In this document: in pieces, positions 9,825 through 48,036 of the stretch
How the letters are laid out: the number at the start of each line of letters is the position of its first letter
How positions within the stretch are numbered: position 1 is the first letter of the stretch
Assembly (NCBI GenBank): GCA_002368355.1
Contig: AP018281.1
Location: 248,001-312,000, forward strand
Reading direction: 5' to 3'
Length of the DNA stretch: 64,000 bases
Source of the DNA: Chondrocystis sp. NIES-4102
Lineage (GTDB): Bacteria; Cyanobacteriota; Cyanobacteriia; Cyanobacteriales; Xenococcaceae
Program-made: the position numbers and the translations under genes
Notes under the pieces: generated by a model
Databases searched by the model: none
The model's input: only the letters and a program-made list of their open reading frames with translations
What the model was told of the DNA's origin: nothing

Positions 9825-10778
9825 TTAATTAAATACAGGTGATTCTAAATCAGCAAATAAGGCAGTACTGAGATAGCGTTCTCCGAAACTAGGCTGTATC
9901 ATCACAATTAGTTTATCCTGATTTTCTGGTCTTTTAGCCACTCGAATAGCTGCTGCCAAGGCTGCACCACTAGAAATACCAGACAATAAACCCTCTTCGC
10001 GAGCCATACGACGACCAAACTCAATTGCCTCATCGTCGGATACAGTAATCACTTCGTCGATCAAATCAACCTTTAAAACTTCGGGTATAAAACCTGCGCC
10101 GATACCTTGTATTTTATGGGGTCCTGGTTTACCTCCTGAAAGTACAGGACTATTTATAGGTTCTACAGCGATCGCTTTTAATTCTGGTTTATATCTTTTG
10201 AGAACTTCAGCTACCCCTGTAATAGTTCCCCCTGTACCAACTCCTGAGACAATGATATCAACTTTTCCTTCTGTATCTGCCCAGATTTCTTCGGCGGTGC
10301 TAATTTTATGAATTTCGGGATTAGCAGGGTTATTAAACTGCTGTAGCATATAAGCATCGGGGACATGATCCGCAATTTCTTGTGCTTTTCTAATACAGCC
10401 TCCCATCCCTTCGCTACCTGGAGTTAATTCTAACTGTGCGCCGTAGGCTTTTAACATCGCCCGTCTTTCTTTACTCATGGTTTCGGGCATAGTCAAGATT
10501 AATTTATATCCTTTAGCAGCAGCAGCCATTGCTAAGGCAATTCCTGTGTTTCCCGATGTCGGCTCAACTAAAATGGTTTTTCCAGGAGTAATTGCACCAT
10601 TTGCTTCAGCAGCATTAATCATATTTACCCCAATGCGATCTTTAACTGAGGAGGCGGGGTTCATTCCTTCTAACTTAACAACTATTTGGGCAACACATCC
10701 TTCTGCTTGGGGAATTCGATTAAGCTGTACTAAAGGAGTTTTTCCCACTAGTTCGGTAACATTTTTGGCAATTTTCAT
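9825..10778 (-). CDS. cysK: Cysteine synthase A (O-acetylserine sulfhydrylase)
   Basis: A PLP enzyme of 317 residues. The PLP lysine lies in [11 protein letters not shown] (Lys46), the asparagine loop in [15 protein letters not shown], and the phosphate-binding [10 protein letters not shown] and serine-containing [10 protein letters not shown] follow in order. It joins O-acetylserine and sulfide to cysteine. ATG at 10778 is chosen over a TTG three codons upstream. The gene is preceded by a long spacer carrying a structured minus-strand RNA candidate that ends about 125 bp upstream of the start, so leader-based control is possible. The length and motifs are complete. Confidence 0.96.
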
Positions 10779-10903
10779 AACAGGCAAGGTAGAAATACGT
10801 ATTTTTATTGTGCTGGTTTAATCAATAATCTACCGAGATATTTTTAAATAATTTATATTTGTTAGCTTTATTTTTTTTTATATACCATTATGAAATATTA
10901 TCC

Positions 10904-10989
10904 CCAAAAACTATCCGCCCCCACAAACTGATAACGGTCAACAACAATGGATTATATATTGCTGCTTTTGCTATCACCTGTGAGGGCGG
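10904..10989 (-). terminator. Long GU-rich hairpin followed by a U-run, upstream of cysK
   Basis: Read on the minus strand, CCGCCCUCACA (10989-10979) pairs with UGUGGGGGCGG (10925-10915) over 11 bp with one U.G wobble. Inside it UGAUAGC pairs with GUUAUCA and AGCAGCAAU with AUUGUUGUU, again using G.U wobbles. These wobbles would be C.A mismatches on the plus strand, so the structure belongs to minus-strand RNA. AUAGUUUUU follows the stem. It may end the upstream RNA or act as a conditional terminator for cysK. The large size is unusual for a simple intrinsic terminator. Confidence 0.5.
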
Positions 10990-11176
10990 TCTAGAGGGTC
11001 TCTTAGTCGAAACCTAACTGCTGGAAGGAACTCCAACAATGTCTACCTAGCTACCTCCGAAGAGGTTTAGATGTGACTGCTTAGAGAACAGCCCCAGCAC
11101 ACAGCTGGTTATCATCAACTAGGAGACCCATGTTACTACTACTAGATTCTGTCATGGGCATCACCTCCTGTATCCC
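10990..11176 (-). ncRNA. Structured RNA candidate (leader of cysK or independent sRNA)
   Basis: A stretch much richer in GC than its flanks and lacking a long reading frame. On the minus strand it shows a stable ACCUC-UUCG-GAGGU hairpin (11066-11053) with a C(UUCG)G tetraloop, a CAGC-UGUGU-GCUG hairpin, and a long-range stem GGGUCUC (11129-11123) with GAGACCC (11002-10996). It also holds a 24-codon frame (ATG 11155, stop 11083-11081) with a perfect AGGAGGTGAT eight bases or fewer upstream and four successive Ser codons at positions 4-7. A 6S-type RNA, a cysK leader, or a small-protein mRNA are all possible. I could not assign a known family. Confidence 0.5.
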
Positions 11177-11216
11177 TAAATGGTTAGCGATAAAATTCTA
11201 TCTAAAGTTAATATAG

Positions 11217-12581
11217 CTAAATTTTATAATTTCGGCAAGATTGTACAAACTTTTTAGGTAAAAATTTAAATTCTCCCCAGTGAAGATGGAGATAGGAAGC
11301 GTGTAATTGTTTAATACTATATCCTTCGATGAGTTTGGGGCTTGAATGGTGAACACCCTGTAATTGCCATAAAGGGTTTTTTACAGGTAGAGTTAATTGC
11401 GATCGATGAAATTCATGTCCTCTAATTATTTGTTGTGCAGATATTAAAGAACTATCTTGTAAAGCTTGCGCCTGTCGATATCCTAAAGTTAATTTGGCGA
11501 ACATTGTCACTAAATTAGGAATTGCACCCACCATTGACCAAGTTTTCCCTTGAAGGTCGGTTAACTCTTGAGTTAGATACATCAAACCTCCACATTCAGC
11601 ATAGGTAGGAATACCCTGTTTAATTATCTGTTGAAGTTGTTGTAAAACAGTTTGATTAGCTGCTAATTGTTGGGCAAATATCTCTGGAAATCCACCACCG
11701 AAATATAGCCCTTGGATATTATGGGGAATATGATCATCTTTGATCGGACTCCAAAAAACTAGTTGCGCCCCTAATTCTTGCAGGATGTCTAAATTATCCT
11801 GATAGTAGAAATTAAAGGCTTGATCAAATGCGATCGCAATTCTTGTAGTTATGGGTTGTTGCTGGCTAGGAGGGCTTGTTGCTGGTTGTTGCTCAATTAA
11901 TGGTAATAGTTTATCCCAATTAAAGGATGTACTGGCAAGATGGGCTAGTTTAGTAAATATTTTCTCGATTTCAGGAAGTTCGGCGATAGGAATGAGTCCT
12001 AAATGACGATCTCCCAGAGTTATATTTTGATTGCGTCTAATTACTCCTAAAATCGGCATCTCAATACTATTTAAAGCTGTTTCTAATAATTCCAAATGGC
12101 GATCGCTCGCTACTTTATTAAGAATTACCCCAGCTATGGTTACTCTAGGATCGAGATTACGATAACCTAGGGCGATCGCAGCAATGGAACTTGATAAACT
12201 AGAGCAATCTAGTACTAAAGCTACGGGTATATTAAGTAATCTTGCTATATGAGCGGTGCTACCATAATCATTTAACGCTTCGGGATTATCTAAATCTCGA
12301 ATACCATCAAATAAGCCCATCACCCCTTCAATTACCACCCCCTCCCCTTGATTTGCATAACGCTCAAAACAAGTTTTGACATACTGGCAAGAAGTTAAAA
12401 ACGGATCTAAATTACGGCAAGGTAAACCTGTAATTGCCTTATGAAACATCGGATCAATATAGTCAGGGCCGACTTTAAATGATTGAATTCTTTTAGCTTT
12501 AGTTTTTAAATAAGCAAGTATGGCTAAAGTAATAGTTGTTTTCCCAACTCCAGAGCGATCGCCAGCAATAATTAATGCCAT
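11217..12581 (-). CDS. cbiA: Cobyrinate a,c-diamide synthase
   Basis: A 454-residue two-domain protein. The N-terminus MALIIAGDRSGVGKTT carries the P-loop of the dethiobiotin-synthetase-like ATPase domain, with KVGPDYIDPMFH and EGVMGLFDG following. The C-terminal class I glutamine amidotransferase domain is marked by YFGGGFPEIFA and the nucleophile loop YAECGGLMYL, with EFHRSQL near the end. It amidates two carboxylates of cobyrinic acid in B12 synthesis. ATG at 12581 is chosen because an upstream start at 12647 adds 22 residues ahead of the P-loop strand. No other cobalamin gene is adjacent. Confidence 0.93.
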   Translation of the reverse strand: MALIIAGDRSGVGKTTITLAILAYLKTKAKRIQSFKVGPDYIDPMFHKAITGLPCRNLDPFLTSCQYVKTCFERYANQGEGVVIEGVMGLFDGIRDLDNPEALNDYGSTAHIARLLNIPVALVLDCSSLSSSIAAIALGYRNLDPRVTIAGVILNKVASDRHLELLETALNSIEMPILGVIRRNQNITLGDRHLGLIPIAELPEIEKIFTKLAHLASTSFNWDKLLPLIEQQPATSPPSQQQPITTRIAIAFDQAFNFYYQDNLDILQELGAQLVFWSPIKDDHIPHNIQGLYFGGGFPEIFAQQLAANQTVLQQLQQIIKQGIPTYAECGGLMYLTQELTDLQGKTWSMVGAIPNLVTMFAKLTLGYRQAQALQDSSLISAQQIIRGHEFHRSQLTLPVKNPLWQLQGVHHSSPKLIEGYSIKQLHASYLHLHWGEFKFLPKKFVQSCRNYKI

Positions 12582-47788: not shown

Positions 47789-47940
47789 TGATTATCTATT
47801 GATAACTTAACTATGGTATTTCTAAGAAACTCCATTAGTTAATGGACAGCCTATTATTTTAGCCTTGGAGAGTGAAATTTTCGTATATTTTACTGCGGTT
47901 GTTTTTGTAGTGAGATGTAACCGAGTATTTTATATCTAAG

Positions 47941-48036
47941 TGACTCGGATATTACGCCTGTACCAAGCATCCCGTATTGCTGCTGCCTTCCGACCCTGAC
48001 AAGGTTTGGGCGTTAATACCGCATAAGTCCGAATCA
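47941..48036 (-). ncRNA. ffs: Signal recognition particle RNA (small bacterial type)
   Basis: On the minus strand the conserved domain IV is visible: CAGGGUCGGAAGGCAGCAGC, the symmetric/asymmetric loop and GGAA-type tetraloop that bind Ffh. The ends UGAUUCGGA and UCCGAGUCA pair (one G.U), giving a closed RNA of about 96 nt. It works with Ffh and FtsY in co-translational targeting. Ends are set by the pairing and may differ by a few bases. Confidence 0.93.

What the first reader, a model, noticed from the sequence alone, without database searches (positions are those of the whole stretch)
10904..11176. Strongly structured minus-strand RNA between cbiA and cysK with a Ser-rich 24-codon frame
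GC-rich island in AT-rich surroundings. On the minus strand: a C(UUCG)G tetraloop hairpin (11066-11053), a CAGC/GCUG hairpin, a long-range stem (11129-11123 with 11002-10996), and an 86-nt hairpin whose G.U wobbles only work in minus-strand RNA, followed by U's 130 bp before cysK. It also holds a 24-codon frame (11155-11081) with perfect AGGAGGTGAT and four consecutive Ser codons; the sequence right after the Ser codons is the one that pairs in the long stem. That is the layout of a translation-sensing attenuator for a gene that uses O-acetylserine. A 6S-like or other sRNA is an equal alternative.
Basis: partly seen in the sequence, partly recalled or inferred. Interest (0 to 1): 0.7.

Follow-up and report, generated by a model that had tools for sequence, protein, structure and literature searches.

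The report
Cyanobacteria-wide structured RNA with tiny ORF
A short RNA gene found in most cyanobacterial genomes searched folds into a long rod whose one strand is also a tiny reading frame; it looks like a stand-alone RNA already seen in part (probably ncl0160) rather than a switch for the neighbouring cysteine gene, and what it does is unknown.

Summary
Minus strand 11183-10906 carries a structured RNA, single-copy in this genome, conserved far beyond the genus: 57 of 60 genomes by DNA (own genome included), 278 of 388 genomes of the class by covariance model, and a diverged form in 76 of 101 genomes of a small-genome family. Counts include genomes the models were built from. No Rfam family matches.

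A 28-bp rod is supported by covariation (17 pairs changed on both sides). It overlaps the second half of a 17-24-codon ORF behind a strong Shine-Dalgarno. A terminator hairpin follows.

The cysK-attenuator reading is not supported: cysK is the nearest downstream ORF in 14 of 189 loci; 38 have an opposite-strand ORF there, 24 of those at least 150 aa. This genome's 6S RNA lies elsewhere.

The RNA is very probably the ncl0160 family, reported in 2016 as a conserved sRNA likely translated into 23-25 aa (PMC4734099). That match rests on the description, not on sequence.

Best mechanism: a free-standing, translated RNA whose rod is opened by ribosomes reading the mini-ORF. Codons 2-9 show no sign of amino-acid selection. 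Function unknown.

The parts
11210..11238 (-). sigma-70-like promoter TTGCCG-17-TATATT overlapping the end of cbiA; would start the RNA near 11203 (start inferred)
   Evidence: only promoter-like site found in 10750-11330 (shuffles give 1.9 on average, so weak alone). A test for a -10-like TANNNT at one fixed position in 122 non-redundant relatives found none above 30%; similar TA-rich sites at varying distance are seen by eye only
11175..11183 (-). conserved 5' leader box, family consensus CCGTTTAGG (here CCATTTAGG)
   Evidence: at least 6 of 9 matches and enough upstream sequence in 174 of 192 loci examined
11160..11169 (-). Shine-Dalgarno AGGAGGTGAT
   Evidence: sequence; GGAGGTG[AT]TG found in all 57 loci
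11081..11155 (-). 24-codon ORF MTESSSSNMGLLVDDNQLCAGAVL*
   Evidence: corresponding ORF in the relatives
11115..11129 (-). P1 5' strand GGGUCUC-C-UAGUUGA, inside the ORF
   Evidence: covariation of helices 1 and 2
10996..11010 (-). P1 3' strand UCGACUA-A-GAGACCC
   Evidence: covariation of helices 1 and 2
11103..11108 (-). P1b 5' strand CCAGCU, inside the ORF
   Evidence: 99.7% of cells paired in helix 3
11013..11019 (-). P1b 3' strand AGUUAGG (one bulged A)
11092..11098 (-). P2 5' strand GCUGGGG, inside the ORF
   Evidence: 99.4% of cells paired in helix 4
11020..11026 (-). P2 3' strand UUCCAGC
11053..11066 (-). variable tip hairpin with UUCG loop
   Evidence: sequence; tip region poorly conserved
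10906..10993 (-). terminator-like hairpin: CUAGACCGCCCUCAC ... GUGGGGGCGGAUAGUUUUU
   Evidence: GCGGATAG-T(n) type tail found in 163 of 193 loci; read on the minus strand. The simple terminator scan (loop of 3-8) did not list it

Best explanation
This is a free-standing RNA gene, very probably of the cyanobacterial ncl0160 family, with its own promoter and intrinsic terminator. It would make an RNA of about 300 nt with a strong Shine-Dalgarno, a mini-ORF of 17-24 codons, and a long rod (P1-P1b-P2) whose 5' strand is the second half of the ORF. A ribosome reading the ORF must unzip the rod, so the RNA has two states: translated (rod open, its 3' strand free) and untranslated (rod closed). SHOWN by sequence comparison: conservation, rod by covariation, terminator-like 3' end, kept ORF frame, lack of a fixed downstream gene, presence of a related form in a small-genome family. 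INFERRED: promoter, transcription, that the ORF is translated, that opening and closing of the rod is the regulated step, and that the RNA then acts in trans or controls its own stability and peptide output. No target is known.
For: Distribution: 57 of 60 genomes, 278 of 388 class genomes, 132 of 156 genera, one match in nearly every listed genome; 76 of 101 of the small-genome family by a separate model. Two models from disjoint training sets, R1 and R2, hit the same place in G070, which is in neither set. Rod: 95.4%, 97.7% and 96.9% of cells paired in A1, A3 and A4, 0 of 500 shuffles for percentage paired and covariation score in each; the weakest measure, pair types in A1, was reached by 4 of 500. 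ORF: the other two frames are closed in 166 and 191 of 193 loci, and in 62 and 75 of the 77 loci not chosen by an ORF pattern. Context: 38 of 189 loci have the next ORF on the other strand, 24 of them at least 150 aa; 31 of the 38 keep the terminator. The published ncl0160 description fits: 23-25 aa, always an RBS, stops 47 TAA/34 TAG/2 TGA, against 107/83/3 in 193 loci and 44/30/3 in the 77.
Against: No expression or ribosome data were available. Codons 2-9 show no synonymous excess in the ORF frame (0.117 versus 0.167 and 0.298 in the shifted frames), so peptide-level selection is unproven there. For this window the predicted minimum-energy fold has local hairpins and is 3.0 kcal/mol better than the rod; with all rod pairs enforced the rod lies within 1 kcal/mol of the minimum in 20 of 47 sequences. 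Mean predicted unpaired probability is only 0.49 at the SD and 0.37 at the AUG over 47 sequences. The promoter is weak evidence. Some genomes lack the RNA, e.g. the single-contig G189, so it is dispensable. 116 of the 193 loci were fetched with a pattern that requires ATG and TA at the stop position, which biases ORF counts.
Confidence: 0.6

Rival explanations
1. Plain small-protein mRNA: the 17-24-aa peptide is the product and the rod only sets translation rate or stability.
For: Frame kept in nearly all loci; PMC4734099 concludes the transcript is likely translated; codons 10-22 show synonymous excess in frame 0 (0.374 versus 0.193 and 0.169); Gly at codon 9 in 129 of 133.
Against: Codons 2-9 show no synonymous excess; codon 18 swaps Cys, Arg, Trp and Ser, and codon 20 swaps Gly and Glu, changes that lie in the paired or bulged part of the rod; the synonymous excess in codons 10-22 is confounded by base pairing; stop position differs between lineages (17 versus 23-24 codons).
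Confidence: 0.25
2. Cis leader: conditional read-through of the terminator feeds whatever gene lies downstream, chiefly the PCD-like gene.
For: The PCD-like gene is next in 71 of 193 loci; in 26 of 62 with a recognised terminator the gap is 65 nt or less, leaving little room for a promoter; 151 of 189 next ORFs are co-directional.
Against: Downstream gene is not constant; 38 of 189 next ORFs are on the opposite strand, 24 of them at least 150 aa; no conserved antiterminator pairing was seen by eye.
Confidence: 0.1
3. Serine-sensing attenuator of cysK.
For: Ser codons conserved, ORF overlaps the stem, cysK is the nearest downstream ORF in 11 of 13 loci of this genus.
Against: cysK next in only 14 of 189 loci; the same Ser codons and stem persist elsewhere; terminator-cysK gap 100-258 bp in the 13 with a recognised terminator.
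Confidence: 0.04
4. Purely non-coding sRNA; the ORF is incidental.
For: Nucleotide-level conservation in codons 2-9 that does not follow codon logic (for example the third base of codon 7 is mostly C while the first two vary).
Against: A strong SD plus start plus in-frame stop kept in distant lineages including the small-genome family; three-base length changes in the Ser run, though AGT repeats can also slip by three.
Confidence: 0.08

Closest known systems
ncl0160 of Synechocystis sp. PCC 6803 and its Nostoc sp. PCC 7120 homolog (PMC4734099; attributed there to Mitschke et al. 2011a, which I did not see)
   Same: Conserved cyanobacterial sRNA, 23-25-aa ORF always preceded by an RBS, mostly ATG and sometimes GTG, stops 47 TAA/34 TAG/2 TGA in 83 homologs (section 15 read).
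   Different: Its sequence and Figures S1/S2 were not available, so identity is by description only. The paper excluded the marine Prochlorococcus/Synechococcus lineage. The text read mentions a predicted secondary structure for the Nostoc homolog but no covariation analysis.
Dual-function RNAs: RNAIII and SgrS (as cited in passages of PMC2518516; RNAIII also in PMC1242208)
   Same: Structured RNA with a short ORF inside.
   Different: No target is known here; the ORF lies in one strand of the main helix; homology was not tested.
Yfr6 / Downstream-peptide (RF01704)
   Same: About 250-nt cyanobacterial RNA with a short ORF (passages of PMC1242208 and PMC2864571).
   Different: Its peptide is 33 aa and the widely conserved motif is the 5' UTR; no RF01704 match in 10780-11230 at E up to 10.
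Leader-peptide attenuators (trp or his type; recalled)
   Same: A ribosome on a short ORF would decide which helices form.
   Different: No constant downstream gene, and the terminator is not shown to be conditional.

Membership tests
ncl0160 family | conserved 23-25-aa ORF | tested here: met
   23 aa in 164 and 24 aa in 20 of 193 loci; 7 have 17 aa, 1 has 22, 1 has 34; of the 77 loci not chosen by pattern 54 have 23, 15 have 24, 7 have 17, 1 has 34
ncl0160 family | ribosome-binding site always present; TAA more common than TAG, TGA rare | tested here: met
   107 TAA, 83 TAG, 3 TGA of 193; SD found in all 57 loci; paper 47/34/2
ncl0160 family | homologs in most non-picocyanobacterial genomes (83 homologs in the 89-genome comparison) | tested here: met
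   57 of 60 genomes; 278 of 388 of the class; 11 of the 20 listed misses are in the small-genome families f34 and f49, 90 further misses are not listed
ncl0160 family | sequence identity to the named transcript | not testable with these tools
   sequence not in the text read; no look-ups in supplements allowed; only one paper in the library holds the term
Transcription attenuator of cysK | constant association with cysK or related genes | tested here: not met
   cysK next in 14 of 189 loci
Transcription attenuator of cysK | mutually exclusive terminator and antiterminator | tested here: inconclusive
   alternative pairings exist within the rod region; none conserved with the terminator was seen by eye, and no systematic test was run
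6S RNA (RF00013) | match to the covariance model | tested here: not met
   no match at the locus; the genome's 6S is at C1:2917523-2917706, 75.6 bits
Downstream-peptide / glutamine riboswitch (RF01704) | match to the covariance model | tested here: not met
   no match in 10780-11230 at E up to 10
tmRNA | ARAGORN or Rfam match | tested here: not met
   none in the window
Dual-function sRNA | ORF that is translated | not testable with these tools
   no ribosome profiling or proteomics data available
Dual-function sRNA | base-pairing targets in trans | not tested
   no target prediction was done

The most novel reading that the evidence does not exclude
A cyanobacteria-wide, translation-gated RNA switch that is not a leader of any gene: ribosomes reading a mini-ORF, whose codons rather than peptide matter, open a conserved rod and expose its 3' strand. 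With the P site on the conserved Ser codons 4-5, the ribosome's front edge would sit at the base of P1 (geometry inferred from recalled footprint sizes), so charging of tRNA-Ser or the general initiation rate could set how long the rod stays open. This would be a stand-alone sensor of translation kept across the class, including most of the small-genome family sampled.
Probability: 0.25. Interest if true: 0.85.

Novelty: new member of a known kind. Interest (0 to 1): 0.6.

Why it matters
An RNA found in 132 of 156 genera sampled in the class, nearly always in one copy, with covariation that pins its fold, matches no Rfam 15 family in the searches run and is known, as far as the literature searched shows, only as a probable peptide-coding sRNA without a function. 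The fold, the ORF-rod overlap and the link to the small-genome form make it directly testable in model strains. If translation rather than the peptide is what is selected, it would be a stand-alone ribosome-sensing RNA not tied to any downstream gene.

Tried and rejected
Rfam at gathering threshold on the window and on 20 relatives, and at E up to 10 on 10780-11230: nothing at the locus over threshold (the two matches, PreQ1-III and SNORD44, are far below gathering). tRNA/tmRNA: none in the window. Pfam and NCBIfam on eight of the peptides: no family over its cut-off (one Ly49 hit at E 0.015, 16.2 bits against a cut-off of 31.5). Yfr6 as the small-genome name: rejected, 33-aa peptide and a different motif (passages). 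Passages of PMC5386190, PMC5126843, PMC7760959, PMC3219970 and PMC6202907 were searched for this RNA without a recognisable mention.

A three-pair helix around the SD: one pair is missing in 17 of 47 sequences and shows almost no double change, so not claimed. A local hairpin next to P2 (H2) pairs in only 28-46 of 47 sequences per column pair: not supported. In one search the 'non-rod' energies come from a misused constraint, and the last line of that output ('rod better in 47 of 47') is therefore not used.

One hit outside the class (G481, 24.5 bits) was judged false because its ORF is unrelated; it stayed among the 193 loci as L209. Antisense matches in L095 and L159 (17.6 bits) look like mirror matches of the rod; they stayed in A3 as 2 of 82 rows. 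Only 80 of the 116 pattern loci were given to the model. Weak matches in 8 of 12 re-searched genomes (best E 0.021, 18.1 bits) were set aside on score, not inspected.

Rows dropped: A1 used 47 of 57 loci (dropped as near-duplicates or hard to align: L003, L006, L008, L010, L011, L012, L018, L045, L055, L057). A4 used 28 of 32 (dropped L226, L237, L245, L255). L044 (34-aa frame, one base shorter in P1) and L255 (premature stop) break the ORF; both come from incomplete assemblies (86% and 71%). The 193 loci hold 182 distinct RNAs; after removing repeats cysK is next in 11, PCD-like in 67, and 37 of 178 next ORFs are opposite.

Full report
WHAT IS THERE. The island on the minus strand between cbiA (stop at 11217-11219) and cysK is as described: SD AGGAGGTGAT, a 24-codon ORF with four Ser codons, a long-range stem GGGUCUC/GAGACCC, a UUCG hairpin and a large terminator-like hairpin. 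The minus strand is unusually stable (z = -4.90); the plus strand is not (z = -1.52). The only promoter-like site in 10750-11330 is TTGCCG-17-TATATT at 11238-11210, upstream of the RNA and on its strand, but shuffles give 1.9 such sites by chance, and no -10-like motif at one fixed position stood out in 122 non-redundant relatives.

IT IS A CONSERVED RNA GENE. A DNA search hits 57 of 60 genomes, own genome included, one locus in G000. A covariance model R1 from 47 of those 57 loci finds 278 of 388 genomes of the class (132 of 156 genera), one match in all but two of the listed carriers. In a phylum-wide draw it hits 97 of 292; the one hit outside the class has an unrelated ORF and is taken as false. 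These counts include genomes used to build R1. Twelve genomes without a hit were re-searched with looser filters; the best score was 18.1 bits, so losses exist, for example the single-contig genome G189.

THE SMALL-GENOME FAMILY HAS A DIVERGED FORM. R1 gives weak matches (23.8 and 22.9 bits) in two genomes of family f34. The sequence of one of them finds 51 of 81 family members, itself included. Of 32 such loci, 19 were read by script as 17-aa ORFs with ATG (such as MSSSCLTQGLLIAENAG*), one is broken (L255), and 12 were not called because of a GTG start or another second codon and were read by eye; rods and terminators are seen in folds and alignment. Model R2, made from 28 of the 32, finds 76 of 101 genomes of the family, training genomes included, and also hits G070, which is in neither training set, at the place where R1 hits it (R1: C1:670997-671199; R2: C1:670957-671220, E = 2e-9). 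That bridge supports one family. R2 found nothing in the other 19 genomes, among them G087, G105 and G077, which R1 does hit, so the two forms are far apart. Of the 20 misses listed, 16 have genomes of 1.6-1.9 Mb; 5 more are not listed.

STRUCTURE. The covarying fold is a rod: P1, P1b and P2 (coordinates in 'parts'). In A1, 95.4% of 1313 cells pair, 17 of 28 pairs have changes on both sides, no shuffle of 500 reaches the percentage or the covariation score (4 of 500 reach the number of pair types), and sliding the partner by one column drops pairing to 49-53%. In A3 (80 named loci plus two antisense matches) the value is 97.7%, though that alignment is fitted to the model. In the small-genome set A4, rod plus terminator pair in 96.9%. 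In this window it is nevertheless predicted to be more stable than the rod by 3.0 kcal/mol, so two conformations are possible; over the family the enforced rod is within 1 kcal/mol of the minimum in 20 of 47 sequences.

THE ORF. Over 193 loci the ORF is 23 aa (164), 24 (20), 17 (7), 22 (1) or 34 (1), with stops TAA 107, TAG 83, TGA 3; the +1 and +2 frames are closed in 166 and 191. Caution: 116 of the 193 came from a pattern that demands ATG and TA at the stop. In the other 77: 54, 15, 7 and 1 loci with 23, 24, 17 and 34 aa, stops 44/30/3, other frames closed in 62 and 75. Codon-level tests are mixed (133 distinct 23-codon ORFs): in codons 2-9 the share of synonymous single-base differences is 0.117 in frame, lower than in the shifted frames (0.167, 0.298), so nucleotides rather than amino acids look constrained. 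In codons 10-22 it is 0.374 against 0.193 and 0.169, but that stretch is base-paired, which can mimic such a signal. Ser at codons 4 and 5 is kept in 119 and 127 of 133, as AGT in 118 and 127. In the small-genome family codon 4 is mostly still AGT while codon 5 is mostly TGT.

CONTEXT. Nearest upstream ORFs in 193 loci: cbiA-like 44, psbD-like 38 (plus 2 fragments), contig end 43, others the rest. Nearest downstream: PCD-like 71, porin-like 38, cysK 14, J-domain 7, others; 151 co-directional, 38 opposite, 4 without one (ORFs are mechanical and family names are my reading of the sequences, not library hits). Of the 38 opposite ORFs, 24 are at least 150 aa and 19 have a relative in another locus; 31 keep the terminator. 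So the RNA is not the leader of any fixed gene. In this genus cysK is the nearest ORF in 11 of 13 loci. A cysK-like ORF lies in the 4-kb flanks of 38 loci, median start +2369, so the neighbourhood is explained by gene order at least as well as by control. The PCD-like gene begins within 65 nt of the terminator in 26 of 62 cases, so partial read-through there remains open.

WHAT IT IS. PMC4734099 (section 15 read in full) reports ncl0160, found first in Synechocystis 6803, as widely conserved, with a 23-25-aa peptide, an RBS always, and stops 47/34/2 among 83 homologs; it excluded the marine lineage. Those numbers fit this family closely (107/83/3 here). I could not compare sequences. It is the only paper in the library with that name; searches under other descriptions gave nothing else recognisable in their listings, but subscription papers are not held. 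6S, tmRNA and Downstream-peptide/Yfr6 are excluded.

MECHANISM. Shown by comparison: fold, frame, terminator-like end, independence from the next gene. Inferred: the RNA is transcribed from its own promoter; the ORF is translated; a translating ribosome must open P1 and P1b, and in the 23-24-codon form P2 as well; hence translation and rod are mutually exclusive. Whether the output is the peptide, the freed 3' strand, or RNA stability is not known. I put translation-gated RNA function first, plain peptide mRNA second, conditional read-through third, and the cysK attenuator far behind.

Noticed in passing
window 47939-48035 (-): Bacterial small SRP RNA, 60.4 bits.
   Followed up: no
many loci, e.g. 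L038, L120, L222: The RNA often lies downstream of a psbD-like ORF, and many draft contigs end a few hundred bases upstream of it, as expected if psbD is present in near-identical copies.
   Followed up: partly
L033 (G054): The PCD-like start codon lies 16 nt after the terminator T-tract, so that gene may depend on read-through or on a promoter inside the RNA.
   Followed up: no
L036 (G032): A transposase-like ORF sits between the RNA and the PCD-like gene and no GCGGATAG-type terminator was recognised there (identity by eye only).
   Followed up: no
G109:C1:2018477 and C1:2023811: Two copies about 5.3 kb apart, one typical and one diverged (203 and 109 bits), unlike the usual single copy.
   Followed up: no
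L054, L055 and relatives: A subgroup ends the peptide in ...AGAAH* rather than ...AGAVL*.
   Followed up: no
5' leader box CCGTTTAGG upstream of the SD (window 11183-11175): Conserved stretch with no known role (CC and AGG each 90-98% identical in 122 non-redundant loci that were selected for at least 6 of 9 matches); could be a binding site.
   Followed up: no
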